Positions 33,027-41,650 of a stretch of DNA of 64,000 bases are shown one piece after another (within the stretch, counting starts at the first letter, position 1; every line of letters begins with the position of its first letter). The stretch is from Anaerofustis stercorihominis DSM 17244 (lineage in GTDB: Bacteria > Bacillota > Clostridia > Eubacteriales > Anaerofustaceae). The DNA lies in assembly GCF_000154825.1 (NCBI RefSeq), contig NZ_DS560019.1:496001-560000 (forward strand), written 5' to 3'. Below the pieces are notes generated by a model. That model ran no database searches. It saw nothing but the letters and a program-made list of their open reading frames with translations, and was not told the origin of the DNA. The position numbers and the translations under genes were made by a program.

Positions 33027-33057
33027 CAAAAAAACCGATTGTATATACAATCGGTTT
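33027..33057 (-). terminator. Terminator, probably the original one of tRNA-Leu
   Basis: ACCGATTG-TATATA-CAATCGGT hairpin followed by seven T on the minus strand. It lies 12 bases beyond the left att copy. Before the element inserted it would have sat just 3' of tRNA-Leu, which now lies 8.5 kb away. Confidence 0.75.
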
Positions 33058-33068
33058 AAATTCTAAAC

Positions 33069-33080
33069 TGGTGCGGATGA
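33069..33080. other. Left attachment site
   Basis: TGGTGCGGATGA, a 12-base copy of the 3' end of tRNA-Leu including CCA; preceded by TTCTAA as at the other end. Flanking sequences then diverge. Confidence 0.85.
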
Positions 33081-33195
33081 TACCTATTTTTCTAAATAAC
33101 AAAATATATCTAACATTTGAAATGCTTTATTTATAAGACTTTTAGAAACTTTATAAATATGTTCATATGTTCGACAAATCCCCTAATTTACACAA

Positions 33196-33232
33196 AGTGT
33201 GTTAAAAAATGTGTTATCTTTATATGTGTTAT
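33196..33232. repeat. Integrase arm-type repeats, left end
   Basis: Three copies of (A)GTGTTAt-like sites: AGTGTGTTA (33196), ATGTGTTAT (33209) and ATGTGTTAT (33224). The same motif occurs twice next to the right att site, so these are likely integrase arm-binding sites. Confidence 0.6.
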
Positions 33233-33370
33233 TAACTGGTGCATTACGTACTATAAGAAATAGGATAACCCCTTTATCCATAAGGAAAACTTAAGTTAAT
33301 AGAATAAAACTTCATATGGTGTTAAAATTTACCTATTATAATAATAAAGAGTGCTTATAATATAAAAAGT

Positions 33371-33604
33371 CAGGTTTTATAAGGTTTTATTAGTAAAATT
33401 TTCAGGTTTTCTCAGGTATATACAAATATAATATCTTTTCTTATAGCCTTTTAACCCCCGTGAAACAGGTTTTTAAGCTTTTTTATCATTGTCAGGTAAT
33501 TTTACAAACATAAGTAACAAAAACACTCAAAAACCTACAAAGTAATGAAAATTAAAGTAATTTCCCTTAAATCCTTATAACTGCATTAGGTTTTCTCAGG
33601 TTTT
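33371..33604. repeat. Cluster of CAGGTTTT repeats
   Basis: The 527-base gap between the left att site and the first gene holds about eight CAGGT(T/A) boxes: CAGGTTTT at 33371, 33403, 33466 and 33597, AGGTTTT at 33382 and 33588, and CAGGT at 33413 and 33493. Several occur as adjacent pairs about 10 bases apart. No gene or clear hairpin is seen in the gap. Role unknown; a protein-binding array is plausible. Confidence 0.55.
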
Positions 33605-33607
33605 AAA

Positions 33608-33829
33608 TCAATCATCTTCAATCCCATACTTTAGATCATGAACAAACCCGTAAGCCTCTAACCTATTCGAAAAATAATCTTTAAATATTTCTTTATCGTC
33701 TTTACGCTGATAAGTGCTTTTATAATGGCTATAACTTAATAACGTTTCCTCTTTTATATCAATGAGTTTATCATCTTTAAATATACTTATAACTTTATAA
33801 TATAATTTTGATATATCCTTTTTTACCAC
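33608..33829 (-). CDS. Small element protein, unknown
   Basis: 73 aa, Lys-, Asp- and Tyr-rich, no known family (VKKDISKLYYKVISIFKDDKL start). GTG start; AAAGGA lies about 14 bases upstream, longer than ideal. Its leader is a diverged copy of the leader before the 97-aa gene 4 kb away. Last gene of the element before the left att site. Confidence 0.55.
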   Translation of the reverse strand: MVKKDISKLYYKVISIFKDDKLIDIKEETLLSYSHYKSTYQRKDDKEIFKDYFSNRLEAYGFVHDLKYGIEDD

Positions 33830-33840
33830 CTATTTTTTAT

Positions 33841-33953
33841 ATATCCTTTCTTTGCTTTGTTTGTAGTTTTAAGTTGGTGTACTTCGGTGTAACGTTCTTT
33901 TTACTCATTTTTAAGTAATGGTTAGTATAGAAAATAAAAACGCTCAAAAAACA
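33841..33953 (-). repeat. Duplicated leader, copy A
   Basis: On the minus strand: TGAGCGTTTTTAT, TATACTAACC, ATTACTTAAAAATGAG, then AAAAAGAACGTTACACC and a ribosome site. About three quarters identical by eye to 37986-38096 over 110 bases. Each copy directly precedes a small gene, so this is probably a shared promoter or control region. Confidence 0.6.
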
Positions 33954-34251
33954 TAGCAAACATTATGAAAATTTAAACCCGCTCGTTTTTGAGCTGTTTT
34001 TCATATTATCATTAAGTCACACGGTAAATATTCCCAGTACCATGTTTGAAGCTCTGATAAGGGTGTTGACAGTACCTATGCCCCATAAACTTTTATATTC
34101 TGCATAATAGACTAATACCGCAGAGGGCTTAACGCTTACGGCTCCGCCCTCTACGGTATTTTTATATTTATATATAAGTATATTTACATATTTCCCCGTT
34201 GTTCCCTCGCTGTTCGTTTGTAATATTTCCCAATTACCAAACCTCTACACA
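33954..34251. other. Non-coding stretch inside the element
   Basis: Contains one strong hairpin at 34115-34154 (ACCGCAGAGGGC/GCCCTCTACGGT) with T-rich sequence on its right side, which could act as a terminator for rightward transcripts, and a smaller GCTCAAAAA/TTTTTGAGC-type pair at 33951-33995. No gene seen. Confidence 0.5.
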
Positions 34252-35361
34252 TTAAGTAAATATAGTTTCTTGTTTTACTTCTTCTCGCTCTTCCTCGTGT
34301 TTGTCCGTTTCTTCAAAGTAGTTATATTTAGGTATAAATTTAAAAAATACTTTTCCCCCTGTTCTTCCGTTCCTGTTCTTCAGTATCACAAGTTCTATAT
34401 ATCTTTCATCACTCAGCTTACACTCTTCTATTATCTTTCTGTTTTCTTCTTTCTCGGTGTTGTTCTTGGCAAATTGTAAGCCTTGAGGCTGTAAACCTAT
34501 TAACACATCGCTTGAATACTCAATAGCTCCGCTTTCCTTAAATGCTGTCATTGTTACGGGATTATTATAATTATCACGGTTAAAGGAAGATATACCAAAA
34601 ATGGTTAAATGATTATCACGTGCAAGCCTCCTTAAATTTGTTACCGTTCTGTCGGTGTTCTGCTTATCCGTGTAGCGGTCATTTATCGGAGAAAGTATCT
34701 GAACATAGTCAATAAATACCACTGGCTTTTTGTTACGGAAGTCTATATGCTTTTTTATATCCTCTTCAAGTTCTTTTACACCGTAGTTATATACACTCTC
34801 GATTATAAAAAGGTTTCTGCTTTCTTCCCGGTATAAACTTAAAGCATTGAAATACAATTCCTTTTCAAATTCATTGAATTTACTTATCTTCTCATAATCG
34901 GTAATTATATTTGCGGACTTCGCAAGGTGTTTACTTACCCCGCTTAATATATATGTGTTTCTGCTTATGCTTTTTGCTCTCAGTTCGTTTGCTGACTGTT
35001 CAAGGCTTATAAATAGTACATCTTGATTTTGTCTTGCCATTTGATATGCAAGCTGTAAGCAAAAGGTAGTTTTACCCAGTGAAGATATAGCACCGATAAA
35101 ATAAATGCCCTCTTTAAGTCCTCCGTCAAGCTCTTGATCTAAATTATAAAAACCTGTTGGGATATAGGGCTTATTAATGCTGTTCTTTATATCCGTGTAG
35201 AAGTCTTTAGCCCTGTGGTATTCGCTTTTAAGGTTATACTCTTCTATATCCGCTCTGTATTTATCTGCCTTTTTCTTGTCTTCTTCCGTGATATCCTCTA
35301 CATATCCAGTTGTATCACTAAGTATTTTATTTACATGATATTTTCTTTCGCTGTCGTTCAT
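34252..35361 (-). CDS. DnaB-like replicative helicase of the element
   Basis: RecA-fold helicase, 369 aa. Walker A is GAISSLGKTTF, Walker B VVFIDYVQIL, followed by LRRLARDNHLTIFGISSF and a DnaB-like LKNRNGRTGGKVFFKF. It starts TGFYNLDQELDGGLKEGIYF like the DnaB C-terminal domain. The usual DnaB N-terminal collar is replaced by only about 60 residues. It lies just beyond the iterons, so a role in replicating the element is likely (inference). Confidence 0.85.
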   Translation of the reverse strand: MNDSERKYHVNKILSDTTGYVEDITEEDKKKADKYRADIEEYNLKSEYHRAKDFYTDIKNSINKPYIPTGFYNLDQELDGGLKEGIYFIGAISSLGKTTFCLQLAYQMARQNQDVLFISLEQSANELRAKSISRNTYILSGVSKHLAKSANIITDYEKISKFNEFEKELYFNALSLYREESRNLFIIESVYNYGVKELEEDIKKHIDFRNKKPVVFIDYVQILSPINDRYTDKQNTDRTVTNLRRLARDNHLTIFGISSFNRDNYNNPVTMTAFKESGAIEYSSDVLIGLQPQGLQFAKNNTEKEENRKIIEECKLSDERYIELVILKNRNGRTGGKVFFKFIPKYNYFEETDKHEEEREEVKQETIFT

Positions 35362-35384
35362 ACATTTGGCTTTACCCTTTCTTT

Positions 35385-35588
35385 TTATCCTCGCATATAT
35401 GCAAGTAACTTTTTTTCAAGTGTTTTTATATGCTGTTTTTGTTCTTTTATTATTCTGTCTTTTTCTTCAATGTTTTTATTAATTAAAAATAGATTTGATT
35501 TTAAATCTGCATTTTCATTTGCCATATCGTTAAACACTTCGGTACGTACCGTTATAAACTCATCATTCTTAGGGCTTATATGTTTCAT
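35385..35588 (-). CDS. Small coiled-coil protein
   Basis: 67 aa, predicted single coiled coil (NADLKSNLFLINKNIEEKDR... KTLEKKLLAYMRG). GAGGG precedes the ATG. It lies 23 bases before the helicase gene in the same operon, so it might be a helicase-loading or oligomerisation partner; this is speculative. Confidence 0.6.
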   Translation of the reverse strand: MKHISPKNDEFITVRTEVFNDMANENADLKSNLFLINKNIEEKDRIIKEQKQHIKTLEKKLLAYMRG

Positions 35589-35850
35589 GTGGTTTCCCTC
35601 TTTCTTTTATTTATTTTCTTTATATAACCTTGAAGTACATACTATATATTAAGTACTAAAGTATATACTTTAGCGTATATAACAAAGTATAGAGTATATA
35701 TGATAAGGAGTAAGCCCCGCCCGTAAAAAAGGGGCTTACTCCTTTCCGTATTACTCTGTTATACTCTGTAATACTCTACTCTTTTTTGTTAGCAATGACT
35801 AAAACACTCATTATCAGCGGTTTTGAGGACTGTTTTTGGGGTCAAATTCC

Positions 35851-35962
35851 GTTACCACTTTTTACACCCAGCGTTACCAGTTTTTACAGTGTCTGTTACC
35901 AGTTTTTACACCTAACGTTACCACTTTTTACACCTTTTGTTATTCCGTAAGTACTTTTTACA
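35851..35962. repeat. Iteron array, likely replication origin
   Basis: Four copies of GTTACCA(C/G)TTTTTACA at 35851, 35873, 35895 and 35917, an exact 22-base period. A fifth, altered copy (GTTATTCC...GTACTTTTTACA) begins at 35939, the next position in the period. The array ends two bases before the stop codon of the initiator gene. Two helical turns per repeat is typical of initiator-binding iterons. Confidence 0.85.
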
Positions 35963-35963
35963 G

Positions 35964-36821
35964 TTAGACATAAAGAATGACTTTATAGTCCTTGTTACCG
36001 CTCTTTATATTTTTATAACCTTTTATCCAGTTGTTACGCTTAAATTCTTCGCACCTGTCAAGGATATATTTTATATATTTGTTTCTGTCTTTCCTGTTGT
36101 TAATTTCAAGCCCCGCACTTTTAAATATATTGTCATACACTCTTGAACTGTTAAAGGTTTCCCCTTTCTTCTCCTGTTGTTTTATATCCATAATCGAATA
36201 CTTTAAAACATCATCTATCAAAGCTCTTCCCGTATTTGTCTGCTGTTTGGTAGTTATATATTTCTTTTCAACGGTTTCTATTGCCTTATACGTATAGCTG
36301 TAGAGGTATAAAGCGGGTAATTCATATATCCTTACGCCGTCCACCTCATGACCTCCGGCTTTAAGTCTTATAAAACTGCTCTTTATAAGACTGCTTTTAA
36401 TACTTGCATTTATAGGCTTTTTGATGTCTTGTTTTGTTATAGGCTCAAACTTCATACTTAAGTCAATATGATTAAGTTTCATTATAGAGTTTTCAACGGT
36501 TTTTATTTGTGTTGGTGTAGGTCTTTTATTCCCCTGGAGATTATAAACTTCTTTTACGATCGTGCTTAAAAGTAAGTCAATGCTTCTTTGATTTTGTTCA
36601 AGTCCTATCATAAGCCCCTTATCTTGACAAAGTGAACCTATGGCGTTGCTTACCATTTTATCAAACCTTGTTACATGGTTTTCATTGTATTTTATTTCAT
36701 ACGGTATAAAAAAGTCCTTGCAGTTCGATACTGCTATAAAATTGTTATTTTCCTTTAATAATTTATCTTGATTTTTAAATATATTGCTTACCGCATATCT
36801 TGTCTTTTCTTCTTTTGTCAT
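35964..36821 (-). CDS. Probable replication initiator protein
   Basis: 285 aa, no Walker motif. It looks like a two-winged-helix initiator: an N-terminal half with HVTRFDKMVSNAIGSLCQD and a basic middle, and a C-terminal wing (RALIDDVLKYSIMDIKQQEKKGETFNSSRVYDNIFKSAGLEI, then KRNNWIKGYKN). I cannot place it in a named family with certainty. The iteron array immediately 3' of its gene is the main reason for calling it an initiator. Confidence 0.65.
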   Translation of the reverse strand: MTKEEKTRYAVSNIFKNQDKLLKENNNFIAVSNCKDFFIPYEIKYNENHVTRFDKMVSNAIGSLCQDKGLMIGLEQNQRSIDLLLSTIVKEVYNLQGNKRPTPTQIKTVENSIMKLNHIDLSMKFEPITKQDIKKPINASIKSSLIKSSFIRLKAGGHEVDGVRIYELPALYLYSYTYKAIETVEKKYITTKQQTNTGRALIDDVLKYSIMDIKQQEKKGETFNSSRVYDNIFKSAGLEINNRKDRNKYIKYILDRCEEFKRNNWIKGYKNIKSGNKDYKVILYV

Positions 36822-36848
36822 ATCTTATCCTCTACAGGAGAAGATGGC

Positions 36849-37064
36849 TTATGCCTCCCGCTCGCCCTCTTCCTCGGTTATATGGTTTGTGAGTTTTTTA
36901 ACGGCCATTCCCGTAAGATCATAAATAATATCAATAAAAGGGCTTAATGCCTTTAAAGTTTCGCTCTCGGTGTGCTCACTGTCTATCTTCATTCTTTCTA
37001 TTATCGCTCTTGCTTTTATGATGTCGTATCTTGCTTTTTTTAGTTCTTCTGTATCTTTTTTCAT
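36849..37064 (-). CDS. Small element protein, helical
   Basis: 71 aa, helical and charged (KKARYDIIKARAIIERMKIDSEHTESETL, then GMAVKKLTNHITEEEGERE). GAGGAG precedes the ATG. Member of the leftward operon; no family recognised. Confidence 0.55.
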   Translation of the reverse strand: MKKDTEELKKARYDIIKARAIIERMKIDSEHTESETLKALSPFIDIIYDLTGMAVKKLTNHITEEEGEREA

Positions 37065-37094
37065 TGCTCCTCGCTTCCTGTGTTTTTTAATATA

Positions 37095-37298
37095 TTATTT
37101 TGCATCGGTAAAAATAAAGTTTAGGTTACTTCTTCTCTTATCTTCCGTTTTATCTTCCTTACTGAATTTATCTTCATATCCGTAAGGCTTTAAAAGTTCT
37201 TTGATATCACTCATCTTTTCCTCAATTTGTTCTAAGCTAAAATCAATATAGGATAATTTAGTACTTACTAGGGATATGACCCTATCCCAATCATTCAT
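37095..37298 (-). CDS. Small element protein, helical
   Basis: 67 aa with a central helix (DFSLEQIEEKMSDIKELLKPYGY) and a basic tail. Its ATG overlaps the stop of the preceding gene (TAATG), so it is translationally coupled. Confidence 0.55.
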   Translation of the reverse strand: MNDWDRVISLVSTKLSYIDFSLEQIEEKMSDIKELLKPYGYEDKFSKEDKTEDKRRSNLNFIFTDAK

Positions 37299-37528
37299 TA
37301 AAGTGTACCCCCAATAATCAATATTAGCTTACACATCAGCCTTATTACCTCTACAATCCGTAAAGAGGAAAGCAACATCAAAAACATGTATATTAAACTG
37401 CTGTTTTCCTTGATTATTTTTAATAATTTATTTATAATCATTTCAAGAGGTGTAATGCCTTTGTTTAATCTTGTAGAGTGGTTTTGCTGTGGTGGGCTTA
37501 CCGCTCTTTTTTTATTTATGTAATCCAT
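37298..37528 (-). CDS. Small element membrane protein
   Basis: 76 aa from the ATG I favour (AAAGGA eight bases upstream). The C-terminal half is hydrophobic (SSLIYMFLMLLSSLRIVEVIRLMCKLILII), suggesting one or two membrane helices. It overlaps the neighbouring gene at each end. Small membrane proteins in such elements may be holin-like or exclusion proteins, but nothing specific supports this. Confidence 0.5.
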   Translation of the reverse strand: MDYINKKRAVSPPQQNHSTRLNKGITPLEMIINKLLKIIKENSSLIYMFLMLLSSLRIVEVIRLMCKLILIIGGTL

Positions 37529-37700
37529 TTTCAAATCCTTTCTTATAAACTTCTTCCAAAAGGTACTTAAATTCTCTCTCAAGTCCCGTACTCATAAGAT
37601 AATCATTTTTTAATATGCTTAACTCAAGTAATATATTTTCTTTATCTTCGTTAAAGCTTCTATCCGCTTCTTTTACTGCGTTGTTATTTGTTTTTTCCAT
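37512..37700 (-). CDS. Small element protein
   Basis: 62 aa, acidic helix (ADRSFNEDKENILLELSILKNDYLMSTGLEREFKYLLEEVY). Overlaps the 97-aa gene upstream and the membrane-protein gene downstream, as in a compact phage-like operon. No family recognised. Confidence 0.55.
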   Translation of the reverse strand: MEKTNNNAVKEADRSFNEDKENILLELSILKNDYLMSTGLEREFKYLLEEVYKKGFENGLHK

Positions 37701-37977
37701 TTAAATTATCCTTTCTTAAATCCGTATCGATATTTTGTACCGCTTTCTTTAAATCTTCTTTAATGTTCTTTAGTTCCTCTACTGTCTTTTTAAGGCTCTG
37801 TTCTTCTTTTTGTATTTGTTTCTTTGTAAGCAAGTCATAATAACCCATTACCACATTTTCAAGTGTAGAGTAATAACCTATCGCCTCGCTTTCATTCTTC
37901 CATGTCGGTTGTTCCTTTTTTAAAATATAATTCCACCTGTCAACATCGACATAATATCCATTGTTTAATTTAATCAA
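37684..37977 (-). CDS. Small element protein, coiled coil
   Basis: 97 aa: short N-terminal region (NGYYVDVDRWNYILKKEQPTW) then a coiled coil (KKQIQKEEQSLKKTVEELKNIKEDLKKAV). The start codon is not an obvious ATG (TTG preceded by AAAGGAGATG). Directly behind copy B of the duplicated leader. Confidence 0.55.
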   Translation of the reverse strand: MIKLNNGYYVDVDRWNYILKKEQPTWKNESEAIGYYSTLENVVMGYYDLLTKKQIQKEEQSLKKTVEELKNIKEDLKKAVQNIDTDLRKDNLNGKNK

Positions 37978-37985
37978 TTTTTACA

Positions 37986-38096
37986 TCTCCTTTCTTTGTT
38001 TTGTTTGTTGTTTTAAATAGGTGTGTTTAGATGTAACTTTCTTTTTTATCATTCGTGAGTAATTATTAGGGTAGTATATAAAAACGCTTAAAATTC
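37986..38096 (-). repeat. Duplicated leader, copy B
   Basis: Minus strand: TTTTAAGCGTTTTTATATACTACCC, ATTACTCACGAATGATA, AAAAAAGAAAGTTACATC and a ribosome site; matches copy A at 33841-33953. Confidence 0.6.
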
Positions 38097-38122
38097 TTTG
38101 ATATAGAAAATTATTGACTTCC

Positions 38123-38350
38123 TTAAATCCCTTTTCTTTGCTCCTCATTAAAATACTTACCCATATCCTTTACACTTTCGCCTATATAATCAATGATTTT
38201 ATATATTTCATCTTCACGAAAATACTTTCCCTTTTTACCCGTCATGATCTGTGTTATATAAAAATTGCTTCGGTTTAATAACTTTTCAAAGTCTTTAATT
38301 TGTTTATCCTGTTCCGTCAGTTTCCCCCGCAGTTTATAATATGGTTTCAT
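38123..38350 (-). CDS. Phage-type HTH protein (DUF739-like)
   Basis: 75 aa. The pattern KLRGKLTEQDKQIKDFEKLLNRSNFYITQIMTGKKGKYFREDEIYKIIDYIG resembles the Cro-like DUF739 phage regulators. First gene of the leftward run after the Cro-like gene, with an operator-like site (38424-38436) just upstream. Confidence 0.65.
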   Translation of the reverse strand: MKPYYKLRGKLTEQDKQIKDFEKLLNRSNFYITQIMTGKKGKYFREDEIYKIIDYIGESVKDMGKYFNEEQRKGI

Positions 38351-38423
38351 GCTTCAGCTCCTTTAATAAATATATCTTTTGATTTTTGTAAGGTCGTGTT
38401 ACCGACTTTAAATGCGAATATAA

Positions 38424-38436
38424 TTACACTGTGCAA
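38424..38436. promoter_or_regulatory. Repressor operator O1
   Basis: TTACACTGTGCAA, imperfect palindrome matching three sites in the divergent region, placed between the Cro-like gene and the next leftward gene. Confidence 0.6.
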
Positions 38437-38438
38437 CA

Positions 38439-38645
38439 CTAAGAATAAAAAAAATATAAATTAAAATCGTCTTCTTTAATTTCTAAAATTTTGCCTAATA
38501 CAAGAGCTTCATCTAACTTAAAGGTCCTTGTATTATTTATTTTATGGCTCAACGTAGATTGAGTGATACCCATTTTATTGGCAAGCTCTTCCTGTGTAAA
38601 GCCTAACTCTTTCAATCTACCTTTTATTTTTCTACTATTTACCAC
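38439..38645 (-). CDS. Cro-like XRE regulator
   Basis: 68 aa HTH protein (SRKIKGRLKELGFTQEELANKMGITQSTLSHKINNTRTFKLDEALVLGKIL). I start it at the GTG with AAGGAGGTG six bases upstream; a longer form would begin inside the operator region. Divergent from the larger repressor gene, the classic lysogeny-switch arrangement. Confidence 0.85.
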   Translation of the reverse strand: MVNSRKIKGRLKELGFTQEELANKMGITQSTLSHKINNTRTFKLDEALVLGKILEIKEDDFNLYFFYS

Positions 38646-38672
38646 GCTTAACACCTCCTTTTTAATATATTG

Positions 38673-38750
38673 TAACACTATGCAACATATAAATCAATAC
38701 ATAGTGTAATAATATTTTAATAAAATACTATAATATATTGCATTATGTAA
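38673..38750. promoter_or_regulatory. Operators O2-O4 of the divergent switch
   Basis: Three sites of the form TTGCAynrTGTAA: TAACACTATGCAA (38673-38685), ATACATAGTGTAA (38697-38709) and TTGCATTATGTAA (38738-38750), between divergent HTH genes. With O1 they form a four-site set. Confidence 0.7.
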
Positions 38751-38797
38751 TATATTATAGTACAATATACTTAAATTAATTAAAAGGACTAATATAA

Positions 38798-39316
38798 ATG
38801 AATAATTTAGAAATTGGTAACAGAATAAAACAAGTTAGACAAGAAAAAGGACTGAGTTTGAGAGAACTTGGAGAAATTATTGGTATATCAGGAGCAACTA
38901 TACAAAGGTATGAAAACGGACTTATAAATAGATTGAAACTACCAGTAATTGAAAGTATTGCAAATGCTTTAGGTGTAAATCCGTCTTGGTTGATATTTAA
39001 AAGTAAAAATAAATATAAAACTCTTGTTAATGATAAAAATACAATATCATCAGAAAATAAAGACCTTTTAAACAAATTTAATAAACTTTCACCTAATAGA
39101 CAAAAAAGAATAAATAAATTTATAGATATGGAACTTGAAGAACAGAAAGAAGAAGAAATGGCAAAAGAAAGCACTGCAGCATACACCGGAACTGACGGAG
39201 GGCATAGTATCGCGGCAGAAAGCACACAGAAATATAATCAAGCAGAAGAAAAGTCTAAGCCCAAAGTCACAAAGGAAGACTTGGATAGAATTTATAACAA
39301 AATAGATAAGGAATAA
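38798..39316 (+). CDS. CI-like XRE repressor without protease domain
   Basis: 172 aa. N-terminal HTH (IGNRIKQVRQEKGLSLRELGEIIGISGATIQRYENG) and a conserved LPVIESIANALGVNPSWLIF. The C-terminal part is helical and low-complexity (EEQKEEEMAKES..., KPKVTKEDLDRIYNKI), not the Ser-Lys self-cleaving domain of LexA/CI. Induction by SOS self-cleavage is therefore unlikely; relief by an antirepressor or a helper-phage protein is possible (inference). Confidence 0.88.
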   Translation: MNNLEIGNRIKQVRQEKGLSLRELGEIIGISGATIQRYENGLINRLKLPVIESIANALGVNPSWLIFKSKNKYKTLVNDKNTISSENKDLLNKFNKLSPNRQKRINKFIDMELEEQKEEEMAKESTAAYTGTDGGHSIAAESTQKYNQAEEKSKPKVTKEDLDRIYNKIDKE

Positions 39317-39378
39317 AATAATATTACTCTGTTAATGTATATTAAAACAAAGAAATATTATTAAAATAGGTGCATTGT

Positions 39379-40239
39379 ATGGGAAATTGGATAAAAGAAC
39401 ATAAATTTAAAATTCTTTTAATAATAGTATTAATTATATTAGTAATAGGGCTATTTATATCAATAATAGGATTACTTGTTTTACCTAAATTTATATACTT
39501 TACAAATTCAGATATCACGGCGGATTATGTAGGTTATTATGGAATGATAATAACATCAGTAATATCAACTATTGTTACTGTAGTAATTTTTTATTATACA
39601 TTAACTGAAAATAGAAAACAGATAGAAAAAGAGAGAAAATTTACAGAAGAATTAGCAAAAGAAGAAAGAAAATTAAGTGTAAAACCTTACTTAAGTTCAT
39701 CTTTTAAAGAAATAGTATTTAATAAAATGGATAGTAGAATTTTATCATACAATAAAGAAGATGAAAAGTATCTACAATCTGATATAAAAAAAATAGAATT
39801 AGAACAAAATAATTATGATCATGTTGTTTGGTTATATGATAAAGAAAAGGTTTTAGAACAAAAAGATTATACTGGTACCTTTCCTGTAACAGAAACATTA
39901 TCAATGGCTATTAGAAACAAATCGGATTTTTTCAGTTTAAAGAATAAAAATAATTTTTATATATATACAATAAAAAATGTAGGCGCAAATAATGCTATAA
40001 ATATTAGATTAACTATAAATGGAATAAATACTTTACCACCATTTCATTTATCAGAAAATGAAATAAAGAAGGTGCTATTTGTTTCTCCAAAGACTAATAA
40101 GTTTATAGATATACGCTTATTATTTGAAAATGTATTAGGTACGACATATTATGAACAAAAACAGTTAATAAACCTAAACGAACATAAGAGTATCAATTTA
40201 GCTCTACTTTCAAAACCAGAAGAAATAAAAAACGAATAA
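39379..40239 (+). CDS. Two-helix membrane protein, possible exclusion or defence gene
   Basis: 287 aa. Two N-terminal membrane helices (ILLIIVLIILVIGLFISIIGLLVL and MIITSVISTIVTVVIFYYTL) precede a charged coiled linker (ENRKQIEKERKFTEELAKEER) and a soluble domain of about 190 residues. Start at the ATG with AGGTG six bases upstream. It lies between the repressor and integrase, the place where phages and satellites often carry exclusion or defence genes. No specific family is recognised. Confidence 0.75.
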   Translation: MGNWIKEHKFKILLIIVLIILVIGLFISIIGLLVLPKFIYFTNSDITADYVGYYGMIITSVISTIVTVVIFYYTLTENRKQIEKERKFTEELAKEERKLSVKPYLSSSFKEIVFNKMDSRILSYNKEDEKYLQSDIKKIELEQNNYDHVVWLYDKEKVLEQKDYTGTFPVTETLSMAIRNKSDFFSLKNKNNFYIYTIKNVGANNAINIRLTINGINTLPPFHLSENEIKKVLFVSPKTNKFIDIRLLFENVLGTTYYEQKQLINLNEHKSINLALLSKPEEIKNE

Positions 40240-40360
40240 AAAAAGCCCTCTACCTCGGCAAAGGTAAAAGGCTTAAGGAGTGCATTTATAATACACTGTC
40301 TCATCAATAGTTATTATATTATAAGCACTCTTAAAAATCAATCAAAGGAGTGTATTTTTT

Positions 40361-41485
40361 ATGGGAAAAAGAATTAATACCGCCAAATGGTCGGAAAAGT
40401 ACCAAAGGTGGCAAATAAACGTACAAAAGGACGGTGTTAGAAGAAGTTTTTATAGTTCAGTAAAAGGACGTAATGGTCAGAGAGAAGCAAACAGAAAGGC
40501 TGATAACTGGCTTGAAAGCAGTATAACTAATGACAATCAAACAGTAGAAAAGCTAAGCATACAATTTATCGAATATCAAAGCTTAAGAGTTGGGAAAAGC
40601 AGACAGGAAAATATTAAAAGTCATTTCAAACTATACATAAATAAACTTATAGGTAATAAAAAAATTGCCAACCTTACGGAACAGGACTTACAGAATGTTC
40701 TTGATTTTATGTATAAGAAAGGTAAAGGCTATAGCTATATTGATGAAGTAAAAAGAACAATACTACCTTTCATGAAATTTCTAAGGAAGAATAAAATTAC
40801 AACTCTTAATCCCGAATTTTTAGAAGTAAACCCAAAAGCTAGAAGAAAAGATAAAAAAGGTACTCTTCAGCCTAAAGATATTTATACTCTTTTTAGATCG
40901 CCTTATACCCTCCTCTACGGAGAAAAAACAAAAGATATATTTATATATGCTTACCGTTTCGCTGTTGTTACCGGACTTAGAAGAGGCGAACTACTGGGGC
41001 TTAAATGGTCGGATATTTTAAGAGATATAAACGGCAGTACTATTTTATATGTAAATAGGGCTGTAAATGAATTTGGAGAAATAACACAAGGAAAGACAGA
41101 CAATGCAAAGAGGTCTTTTATACTTCCTCAAATCGCGGTTGAAATCCTCGAAGAACAAAATATACAACAAACATGTAAAAGTCCTTATATCTTTACCGAT
41201 AAATATAACGAAAGAATACGACCTCAACAGCTTACGGCACGTTTTAGGATATATGCAAATTATAACAAATTATCAAGACATACCTTGCATGAGTTAAGAC
41301 ATACTTTTATAAGCCTAAATAAAGATAATTTAAGCTTATCGTTGCTAAAAGACTTTGTTGGCCATAGTCCTAATATGAAAACATTGAGCATATACGGACA
41401 CTCAATAGAAAATGAAACCCTTGAAGCTAGTAAACTTATTAATGACCGCTTCAATGAAATCTTGAATAAGAAGAATAATTATTAA
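40361..41485 (+). CDS. int: Tyrosine integrase
   Basis: Site-specific recombinase, 374 aa. N-terminal arm-binding domain (KWSEKYQRWQINVQKDGVRRSFYSS), SAM-like core-binding domain, then the catalytic domain: Arg in GLRRGELLGLKWSD, HELRHTF (HxxR), DFVGHS and the nucleophile Tyr in MKTLSIYGHS. AAAGGAG precedes the ATG. It lies 83 bases from tRNA-Leu, as expected for an integrase acting at that att site. Confidence 0.96.
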   Translation: MGKRINTAKWSEKYQRWQINVQKDGVRRSFYSSVKGRNGQREANRKADNWLESSITNDNQTVEKLSIQFIEYQSLRVGKSRQENIKSHFKLYINKLIGNKKIANLTEQDLQNVLDFMYKKGKGYSYIDEVKRTILPFMKFLRKNKITTLNPEFLEVNPKARRKDKKGTLQPKDIYTLFRSPYTLLYGEKTKDIFIYAYRFAVVTGLRRGELLGLKWSDILRDINGSTILYVNRAVNEFGEITQGKTDNAKRSFILPQIAVEILEEQNIQQTCKSPYIFTDKYNERIRPQQLTARFRIYANYNKLSRHTLHELRHTFISLNKDNLSLSLLKDFVGHSPNMKTLSIYGHSIENETLEASKLINDRFNEILNKKNNY

Positions 41486-41486
41486 A

Positions 41487-41508
41487 AGTGTGTTATAAAG
41501 TGTGTTAT
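41487..41508. repeat. Integrase arm-type repeats, right end
   Basis: AGTGTGTTAT at 41487-41496 and again at 41499-41508, matching the three sites near the left att. Confidence 0.6.
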
Positions 41509-41525
41509 TTCAATGCAATAAAAAA

Positions 41526-41560
41526 ACTGAAACCCTCTCTATCAAAGAATTTCAGTTATT
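41526..41560. terminator. Bidirectional terminator supplied by the element
   Basis: AACTGAAA/TTTCAGTT hairpin; seven T follow on the minus strand, giving tRNA-Leu a new terminator. It can also end the integrase transcript. Confidence 0.75.
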
Positions 41561-41567
41561 TTCTAAT

Positions 41568-41579
41568 TGGTGCGGATGA
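41568..41579. other. Right attachment site within tRNA-Leu
   Basis: TGGTGCGGATGA, the CCA and acceptor end of tRNA-Leu, identical to the left copy 8,499 bases away. Confidence 0.85.
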
Positions 41580-41650
41580 AGGGAGTCGAACCCCCACACC
41601 GAAGTACTAGATCCTAAGTCTAGCGCGTCTGCCAATTCCGCCACATCCGC
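41568..41650 (-). tRNA. tRNA-Leu (anticodon TAG), CCA encoded
   Basis: Cloverleaf readable on the minus strand: acceptor GCGGATG/CATCCGC, D arm GGCGGAATTGGCAGACGC, anticodon arm GCTAGACTTAGGATCTAGT (anticodon TAG), variable arm ACTTCGGTGTG and T arm GGGGGTTCGACTCCC. The long variable arm fits leucine. CCA is encoded. The 3' end is the target of the integrated element but remains intact. Confidence 0.96.

What the first reader, a model, noticed from the sequence alone, without database searches (positions are those of the whole stretch)
33069..41579. 8.5-kb satellite-like element in tRNA-Leu
Exact 12-base att copies, a tyrosine integrase, a divergent repressor switch, an iteron origin, an initiator and a DnaB-like helicase, but no virion, packaging or conjugation genes. 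The plan recalls phage-inducible islands, yet a separate initiator plus helicase replaces the usual fused primase/Rep, and packaging genes are lacking. It may be a minimal satellite class or an integrating plasmid.
Basis: partly seen in the sequence, partly recalled or inferred. Interest (0 to 1): 0.75.

Follow-up and report, generated by a model that had tools for sequence, protein, structure and literature searches.

The report
Integrating plasmid-like element in a tRNA-Leu
An 8.5-kb piece of mobile DNA sits in a tRNA gene of this bacterium; it joins a virus-type integration switch to a plasmid-type replication unit, is real and precisely bounded, but how it moves between cells is not known.

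Summary
The element is real and precisely bounded: 33069-41567 (8,499 bp), flanked by a 12-bp core from the 3' end of tRNA-Leu. One congener (G001) has the empty site; the other (G002) keeps a relic of a related element there.
It is a mosaic. Integrase, repressor pair and the DNA before int resemble prophage modules, the resident prophage's included. The replication side is of plasmid type: an initiator without a Pfam or NCBIfam family but with an RctB/RepE-like predicted fold, four perfect 22-bp iterons directly 3' of it, and a DnaB-type helicase. Similar arrays lie 3' of related initiators in 12 of 19 testable loci, against 3 of 194 random genes. Many relatives are circular plasmids with primase-helicase fusions; here the primase is missing, perhaps by internal deletion.
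The layout follows Gram-positive PICIs, but no primase, terS or packaging site was found, so membership is not claimed; no relaxase was found either. Best reading: an integrating plasmid under a lysogeny-type switch, transfer route open. Moderately interesting; a new variant of a known kind.

The parts
33069..33080 (+). left att core TGGTGCGGATGA
   Evidence: one of two copies in the window; single copy in the G001 and G002 stretches
33198..33232 (+). three TGTGTTA(T) copies, putative arm-type integrase sites, left end
   Evidence: role inferred
33608..33829 (-). 73-aa ORF, unknown
   Evidence: no confident family
33834..33949 (-). 116-nt leader, 80% identical to 37978-38093
34252..35361 (-). 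DnaB-type helicase, 369 aa, without primase; N-terminal ~26 aa resemble the start of primase-helicases
35385..35588 (-). 67-aa ORF, unknown
35748..35777 (+). three 10-bp repeats (GTAATACTCT) between iterons and helicase
   Evidence: role inferred
35851..35962 (+). iterons: 4 perfect + 1 degenerate copies, 22-bp spacing of the perfect ones, directly 3' of rep (putative origin)
35964..36821 (-). replication initiator, 285 aa, RctB/RepE-like predicted fold
36849..37064 (-). 71-aa ORF, unknown
37095..37298 (-). 67-aa ORF, unknown
37298..37582 (-). 94-aa ORF with hydrophobic C-terminus
37512..37700 (-). 62-aa ORF, unknown
37684..37977 (-). 97-aa ORF, matches phrog_154 ('replication initiation protein')
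   Evidence: 8.3e-10; library label, function not tested
37978..38093 (-). second copy of the 116-nt leader
38123..38350 (-). 75-aa protein, 37% identical to one in prophage-like early region L022
38439..38678 (-). 79-aa Cro-like HTH protein
   Evidence: HTH_3 8e-9
38798..39316 (+). 172-aa CI-type repressor, divergent; similar to the repressor of the resident prophage
39370..40239 (+). 289-aa protein with two hydrophobic N-terminal stretches (membrane spans), between repressor and integrase
   Evidence: no homologue
40223..40361 (+). int-upstream region with hairpin, shared with the resident prophage (70% over 114 bp) and in part with a prophage of G001
40361..41485 (+). tyrosine integrase, 374 aa; TGLRRGE, HELRH, GHS and IYGHS motifs present
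41489..41508 (+). two TGTGTTAT copies, putative arm-type sites, right end
   Evidence: role inferred
41525..41557 (-). element-borne hairpin terminator, downstream of the tRNA
41568..41650 (-). tRNA-Leu, target; right core at its 3' end (41568-41579)

Best explanation
A site-specific integrating plasmid under a phage-type lysogeny switch. SHOWN from sequence: it lies in the 3' end of tRNA-Leu with a 12-bp core, and a congener has the empty site. Its integration side is of prophage type; its initiator, 3' 22-bp iterons and helicase are of plasmid type. INFERRED: the CI-type repressor keeps the leftward operon silent while integrated. When repression is lifted, integrase (with an excision factor not identified here) recombines the two cores to a circle. 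The RctB/RepE-like initiator binds the iterons directly 3' of its gene, opens the origin and loads the element's helicase; priming comes from the host, since the primase half of the usual primase-helicase is missing. The copy re-integrates at tRNA-Leu. Its own terminator hairpin replaces the displaced one behind the tRNA. The membrane protein between repressor and integrase sits where PICIs carry accessory genes and may be exclusion or defence cargo. No transfer genes were recognised, so spread between cells depends on something else (phage particles, a conjugative helper, or DNA uptake).
For: Boundaries: core twice in the window, once in the G001 and G002 stretches; G001 matches the joined flanks; G002 keeps a related right end. 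Switch and integrase families; nearest integrases lie in prophage-like contexts; int-upstream DNA shared with two prophages of the genus. Initiator: AF2 pLDDT 81.1, pTM 0.84; VIA Z 10.7 and 10.3 to RctB domains 2-3, ~8 to RepE54, 7.7 to Pi. Iterons. Conserved replicon: initiator-family hits in 20 of 90 helicase loci and a separate Rep3 cluster in 35 of 90; 34 of 53 loci with both genes have initiator then helicase, same strand, within 1.5 kb; 20-23-bp arrays 3' of the initiator family 12/19, Rep3 21/35, random genes 3/194. Plasmid nature: 17 of 55 complete contigs have terminal overlaps; 27 of 27 PLSDB hits typed non-mobilizable.
Against: No excised circle or free replicon was seen; no reads could be examined. 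No excision factor was recognised. The window element has no recognised ParA, unlike 36 of 90 helicase loci. As an integrated unit it was found nowhere else: initiator-profile hits in 3 of 391 genomes of the class and 6 of 67 of the order, the own genome included. The missing primase may mean the replicon is impaired. Initiator identity to its relatives is low (16-26%). Shared regulatory DNA with the resident prophage fits a satellite at least as well.
Confidence: 0.52

Rival explanations
1. A phage satellite of the PICI kind with a plasmid-derived replicon: a helper phage lifts repression, the element replicates as a concatemer and is packaged in helper particles through a short cos/pac-like site that was not recognised.
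For: Gene order int-accessory-repressor | Cro-like-...-rep-ori matches the Gram-positive PICI plan (PMC6092414 passages), with the ori directly 3' of rep; 8.5 kb, no virion genes recognised; a resident prophage at G000:C1 has a terminase match and portal- and tail-like genes read by eye; its repressor is similar (32% over 127 aa) and the DNA before its int is 70% identical over 114 bp to that before the element's int (E 1.4e-7; best E in 40 Markov resamples of the element 1.0e-4), although the two integrases are not alike (blastp E 0.85). PICMIs show that packaging genes are dispensable (PMC10803314 passages).
Against: No terS; no cos/pac-like stretch shared with the fetched prophage segments was recognised (the shared words of 15 or more bases with at least 35% G+C all lie in the repressor gene). 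No primase. Replicon relatives include many plasmids. Shared regulation may only mean common ancestry of the int modules.
Confidence: 0.3
2. A relaxase-less integrative mobilizable element (MGI) that excises and is mobilised by the machinery of a conjugative helper through an oriT.
For: IMEs with Rep_3-type initiators and MGIs without relaxase are described (PMC5704250 passages); an initiator relative in the same order sits on a segment with ParA-, ParB- and relaxase-like proteins (L027, read by eye).
Against: No relaxase or other conjugation gene recognised; oriT was not searched; no conjugative helper was looked for in the genome.
Confidence: 0.1
3. A decaying remnant, no longer able to move: a once larger plasmid/prophage hybrid that lost partition, primase and transfer genes.
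For: Primase half missing; no recognised ParA; G002 shows that such elements decay at this site.
Against: Integrase, repressor, initiator and helicase frames are open, integrase motifs present, helicase positions G96, K97, T98 and D218 as in its relatives; cores identical; four iterons perfect.
Confidence: 0.08

Closest known systems
Small relaxase-less plasmids with RepB/Rep_3 initiator and primase-helicase, e.g. S. thermophilus pSMQ308 and pSMQ-316 (L149, L150)
   Same: DnaB-type helicase 47-48% identical; plasmid replication initiator; tyrosine recombinase; similar size; typed non-mobilizable
   Different: free circular plasmids; long primase-helicase; a smaller tyrosine recombinase (308 and 314 aa by the coordinates); no divergent repressor pair in PLSDB's (incomplete) gene table; integration at a tRNA not known to me
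Gram-positive PICI / SaPI
   Same: integrase and repressor in one direction, opposing operon with rep and iteron ori directly 3' of rep; accessory slot between int and repressor; no virion genes recognised
   Different: no primase, xis, terS or capsid-redirecting gene recognised; plasmid-type initiator; induction and packaging untested
PICMI (Vibrionaceae)
   Same: small, integrase plus regulator plus replication gene, no packaging genes (PMC10803314 passages)
   Different: PICMI has AlpA and a DUF3987/DUF5906 primase and sits next to fis; Vibrionaceae hosts
IMEs/MGIs with Rep_3 initiators (SGI1, BcenGI2)
   Same: integrated element with theta-type initiator (PMC5704250 passages)
   Different: SGI1 is 42 kb and carries conjugation-related genes; none recognised here
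Phage P4
   Same: can be a plasmid or integrated (abstract of PMC7552001 in a search listing)
   Different: P4 gene content not compared here

Membership tests
Rep-iteron-helicase plasmid replicon (as defined here by relatives) | initiator of the window-type family | tested here: met
   profile from six seeds, the window's protein among them; hits in 25 loci, 20 of them among 90 helicase loci
Rep-iteron-helicase plasmid replicon (as defined here by relatives) | ~22-bp iteron array directly 3' of the initiator | tested here: met
   relatives 12/19 vs 3/194 random genes
Rep-iteron-helicase plasmid replicon (as defined here by relatives) | primase-helicase fusion | tested here: not met
   helicase part only, 369 aa; 82 of 92 relative ORFs are 586-792 aa, 9 of the 10 shorter ones touch a contig end, L081 (477 aa) does not
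Gram-positive PICI | divergent regulator pair, int on the repressor's side | tested here: met
   definition from PMC6092414
Gram-positive PICI | excision function (xis) | tested here: inconclusive
   no family match; small ORFs unassigned
Gram-positive PICI | primase homolog plus initiator | tested here: not met
   initiator present; no primase recognised (Pfam; tblastn of six primase halves, best E 0.49 at two places, one of them the helicase's own N-terminus)
Gram-positive PICI | ori with iterons immediately 3' of rep | tested here: met
Gram-positive PICI | no structural or lytic genes | tested here: met
   13 of 15 ORFs scanned with Pfam; a holin family at E 0.94 for the membrane protein is taken as chance
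Gram-positive PICI | terS (sometimes) or helper cos site | tested here: inconclusive
   none recognised against fetched prophage segments; other helpers unknown
Gram-positive PICI | phage-dependent induction and packaging | not testable with these tools
   needs culture
Gram-positive PICI | attachment site never used by prophages | not tested
   -
IME / MGI | relaxase | tested here: not met
   (relaxase-less MGIs exist)
IME / MGI | oriT used by a helper | not tested
   -
RepE/Pi/RctB-type iteron initiators | initiator fold | tested here: met
   predicted model: Z 10.7 (rmsd 5.9, 232 aligned) to RctB d2-3; Z 8.1 (rmsd 6.2, 203 aligned) to RepE54 7rva; Z 7.7 (rmsd 5.7, 214 aligned) to Pi
RepE/Pi/RctB-type iteron initiators | sequence match to Pfam Rep3_N | tested here: inconclusive
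   no match for the window protein; L017's initiator, of the other cluster, matches at 5e-6

The most novel reading that the evidence does not exclude
A minimal phage satellite whose replication unit was taken from a relaxase-less plasmid and then lost its primase, leaving initiator plus helicase, and whose integrase is controlled through DNA that it shares with the resident prophage; it would link two pools of mobile DNA (phage-type lysogeny modules and 'non-mobilizable' plasmids) and suggest that such plasmids themselves travel in phage particles.
Probability: 0.28. Interest if true: 0.7.

Novelty: new variant of a known kind. Interest (0 to 1): 0.42.

Why it matters
It shows a phage-type integration switch joined to a plasmid replicon whose initiator no Pfam or NCBIfam family names, though its predicted fold and its iterons are those of iteron plasmids. 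Related replicons occur in Firmicutes and other phyla, often on plasmids without recognised transfer genes, so the element is a handle on how 'non-mobilizable' plasmids persist and spread. A helicase gene that seems to have lost its primase makes a direct test of primase need in such replicons possible.

Tried and rejected
Searches without result: viral contigs with the Rep protein and with A2; Rep in plasmids and phages by tblastn; membrane protein in viral contigs, phages and elsewhere in its own genome (only itself); PADLOC for the membrane protein (none; the repressor's hits are generic HTH). Near matches of the whole element in plasmids (10 of 82 records shown) and phages (1 record) cover only ~100 bp or less at the tRNA.

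Looked promising and set aside: L147 and L148 (6.9 and 7.1 kb 'Bacteriophage sp.' with related integrases) read by eye as prophage ends, not small elements. The Streptococcus block L070 7153-12537, shared with L072 at 93.6%, carries Rep3, primase-helicase and integrase on the chromosome, but no flanking repeat longer than 12 bp was found, so it is not claimed as a bounded element. G003 helicase copies are fragments in the frames examined. phrog_154 on the 97-aa ORF was not pursued after one weak phage hit (E 5e-3). The second G001 match to the int-upstream DNA (C66) lies in A+T-rich DNA without an integrase nearby and is taken as chance.

Limits: only the first 25 of 82 PHROG and of 58 Pfam families were displayed for the relatives, and 80 of the 97 ORFs listed were given (17 left out: very long, cut or small ones, the integrase of L080 among them), so absence of virion genes in relatives is not proven. 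The 25 initiator loci include overlapping fetches of the same place (L006/L027, L007/L026). The helicase N-terminus result is modest: among 257 window ORFs it ranks first at E 0.03, the next at 0.039 (best-domain E 0.015 against 0.13); against 2,000 shuffles it ranks first with 14.1 bits, the next 12.7 and 12.5. TGTGTTAT also occurs inside the element away from the ends (38250, and 41081 on the other strand). Nine literature searches showed me no paper on such an element; one search found no paper with both Peptostreptococcaceae and phage satellite, a host name that I only guessed.

Full report
THE UNIT. The core TGGTGCGGATGA occurs twice in the window, at 33069 and 41568; the right copy is the 3' end of tRNA-Leu 41568-41650(-). 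Three genomes of the genus are held, the own one included; all three match the right flank and at least part of the left flank. In G001 the left-flank terminator stands directly before the core and tRNA, as in the joined window flanks: an empty site. In G002 the core occurs once in the stretch compared, preceded by ~106 bp that match the window element's right end: the integrase C-terminal tail, one TGTGTTAT copy (the window has two) and the hairpin. The ~250 bp further left match no part of the element in the blastn. I read this as a relic of a related element in the same tRNA. Removal of one core leaves 8,499 bp.

INTEGRATION END. TGTGTTA(T) copies lie at 33198, 33210 and 33225 on the left and at 41489 and 41501 on the right, with few others inside, a layout expected of arm-type integrase sites (inference). 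The native tRNA terminator (33032-33057) was displaced; the element brings its own hairpin with a T run (41525-41557), also kept in the G002 relic. Terminator-like sites number 10 against 2.9 expected in shuffles; promoter-like sites are no more than chance (46 against 44.2).

INTEGRATION AND CONTROL GENES. The integrase (374 aa) has TGLRRGE, HELRH, GHS and IYGHS (catalytic meaning recalled). At E 1e-40 or better it matches 2 of 100 other genomes: G001, on a contig with a terminase match about 13.5 kb away, and G083, whose neighbours read by eye as a prophage early region. IMG/VR gave 12 loci at 33-73% in the best segment, six of them on contigs of 31-46 kb. The 75-aa protein is 37% identical to one in the same G083 region. 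The CI-type repressor resembles that of the prophage in the same genome (32% over 127 aa; 54 bp at 83%). The DNA before int (40223-40333) is 70% identical over 114 bp, in the same position and orientation, to the DNA before the int gene of that prophage (E 1.4e-7; best E in 40 Markov resamples of the element 1.0e-4), and a 37-bp part is 89% identical before the int of the G001 prophage; the alignment shows a common hairpin and a common AAAGGAGTGT leader. The resident prophage's integrase itself is not alike (blastp E 0.85). So the control region, not only the enzyme, is of local prophage type. The 289-aa protein between repressor and integrase has two hydrophobic stretches and no homologue in the collections tried.

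INITIATOR. The 285-aa protein has no Pfam or NCBIfam match. It is 26% identical to 388-aa proteins in three genomes of the order; for one of these the neighbourhood holds ParA-, ParB- and relaxase-like proteins, named by eye (L027). A profile from six seeds finds the family in 25 loci (some overlapping), 20 of them among the 90 helicase loci. AlphaFold2 with 16 sequences gives pLDDT 81.1 and pTM 0.84. The best structural matches are RctB domains 2-3 (Z 10.7, rmsd 5.9, 232 aligned), RepE54 (7rva: Z 8.1, rmsd 6.2, 203 aligned) and Pi (Z 7.7, rmsd 5.7, 214 aligned); Foldseek agrees (best E 1.7e-6, RctB). Z under 8 alone would be weak, but the first 39 rows are all replication initiators.

ORIGIN. 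Four perfect repeats at 22-bp spacing and one degenerate copy stand between the end of rep and the helicase. The same arrangement recurs: arrays with a period of 20-23 bp were found within 700 bp 3' of 12 of 19 testable family members and of 21 of 35 Rep3-cluster genes, against 3 of 194 random genes; 5' of the first two groups it is 0 of 17 and 3 of 35. Random genes show 19 of 183 on their 5' side; I think because many of them lie downstream of these arrays, but this was not checked. One of 3 plasmid-type relatives of the order had an array.

HELICASE. DnaB_C 8.3e-31; PDB relatives are mainly replicative helicases. Relatives at 39-51% identity are mostly larger proteins: of 92 relative ORFs, 82 have 586-792 aa, nine of the ten shorter ones touch a contig end, and one (L081, 477 aa) does not. 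L017, scanned as an example, carries a zinc ribbon and TOPRIM domain before the helicase. The window's protein lacks this part. Of six primase halves none matches the element better than E 0.49; one of the two matches at that value, and two weaker ones, fall on the first residues of the window's helicase. Its first ~26 residues resemble the very start of the fusion proteins: rank 1 of 257 window ORFs, but only just (E 0.03 against 0.039), and rank 1 against 2,000 shuffles, with close runners-up. An in-frame internal deletion is the simplest reading, with modest support.

RELATIVES. The genome-contig scan matched 340 stretches, of which 148 encode a relative; the best 80 were kept as 79 loci; viral contigs gave 11 loci, three of them known. 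For 90 loci (722 ORFs) clusters gave ParA in 36 loci, a Rep3 cluster in 35, a XerC-like integrase in 25 and the window-type initiator in 16 by BLAST clustering or 20 by profile. Of 53 loci with both initiator and helicase, 34 have them in that order, same strand, within 1.5 kb. Of 55 complete contigs 17 have exact terminal repeats of 20 bp or more, as circular molecules do, among them L066 (127 bp, coverage 280 in its title), which has the window-type initiator. Of 80 neighbouring ORFs of window-type loci, 9 match ParA families, 4 Phage_integrase, 3 Resolvase and 1 Mob_Pre; no row labelled as a virion protein is among the 25 PHROG or 25 Pfam rows shown. In PLSDB 27 plasmids match at E 1e-20, all typed non-mobilizable; in the phage collection 2 of 50,697 records. 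As a bounded, integrated unit the element was found only in the window's genome: the initiator profile gives 6 of 67 genomes of the order and 3 of 391 of the class, the own genome included.

COMPARISON. Passages of PMC6092414 give the Gram-positive PICI plan: divergent regulators, int beside the repressor, then xis, pri and rep ('sometimes fused'), ori immediately 3' of rep, sometimes terS. The window matches the order, the ori and the accessory slot; it lacks a primase, and xis and terS were not recognised. Passages of PMC10803314 show satellites without packaging genes; passages of PMC13376191 describe S. thermophilus satellites moved by natural competence, so transfer need not be by particles. 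Passages of PMC5704250 describe IMEs with Rep_3 initiators and MGIs without relaxase. So 'works like' a PICI-type integrated replicon is tenable, 'is a PICI' is not claimed.

HELPER. The own genome gives three phrog_2 matches, one within a region with terminase-, portal- and tail-like genes at C1 (read by eye). Between the element and the fetched segments the clear matches are the repressor gene and the int-upstream DNA; the other rows have E 3.5e-5 or worse, about the range of the resamples or above it. This is a possible regulatory link to a helper, or only common origin of the modules; it neither finds nor excludes a packaging site.

VERDICT. Observation confirmed. The thing is a phage-plasmid mosaic: an integrating plasmid with a lysogeny-type switch, transfer route unknown. 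Novel in combination and in the missing primase, not in kind.

Noticed in passing
G002:C11 10255-10606 (L130, minus strand): Relic of a related element's right end (integrase tail, arm site, hairpin) at the same tRNA-Leu.
   Followed up: yes
window 40223-40361; L132 7049-7207; L021 12384-12420: DNA before int shared by the element and two prophages of the genus, although the resident prophage's integrase is not alike.
   Followed up: partly
window 33834-33949 and 37978-38093: A 116-nt leader duplicated at 80% before two different small genes; short similar reading frames (40 and 55 aa) lie in both copies. Possible shared control region.
   Followed up: no
window 33347-33368 and 40311-40332: 22-nt inverted repeat, 95% complementary, one arm near the left end, one just before int; may be a shared operator.
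   Followed up: no
G000:C1 ~341000-374000 (L132, L133): Prophage-like region with a 2,782-aa protein; possible helper.
   Followed up: partly
L070 7153-12537 and L072 7211-12600: Chromosomal Streptococcus block with Rep3 initiator, primase-helicase and integrase; boundaries not found.
   Followed up: partly
L151 (S. epidermidis plasmid pHD26-2_2): Non-mobilizable 10.6-kb plasmid with the primase-helicase, an integrase and a DUF1474 protein (a family I recall from SaPIs).
   Followed up: no
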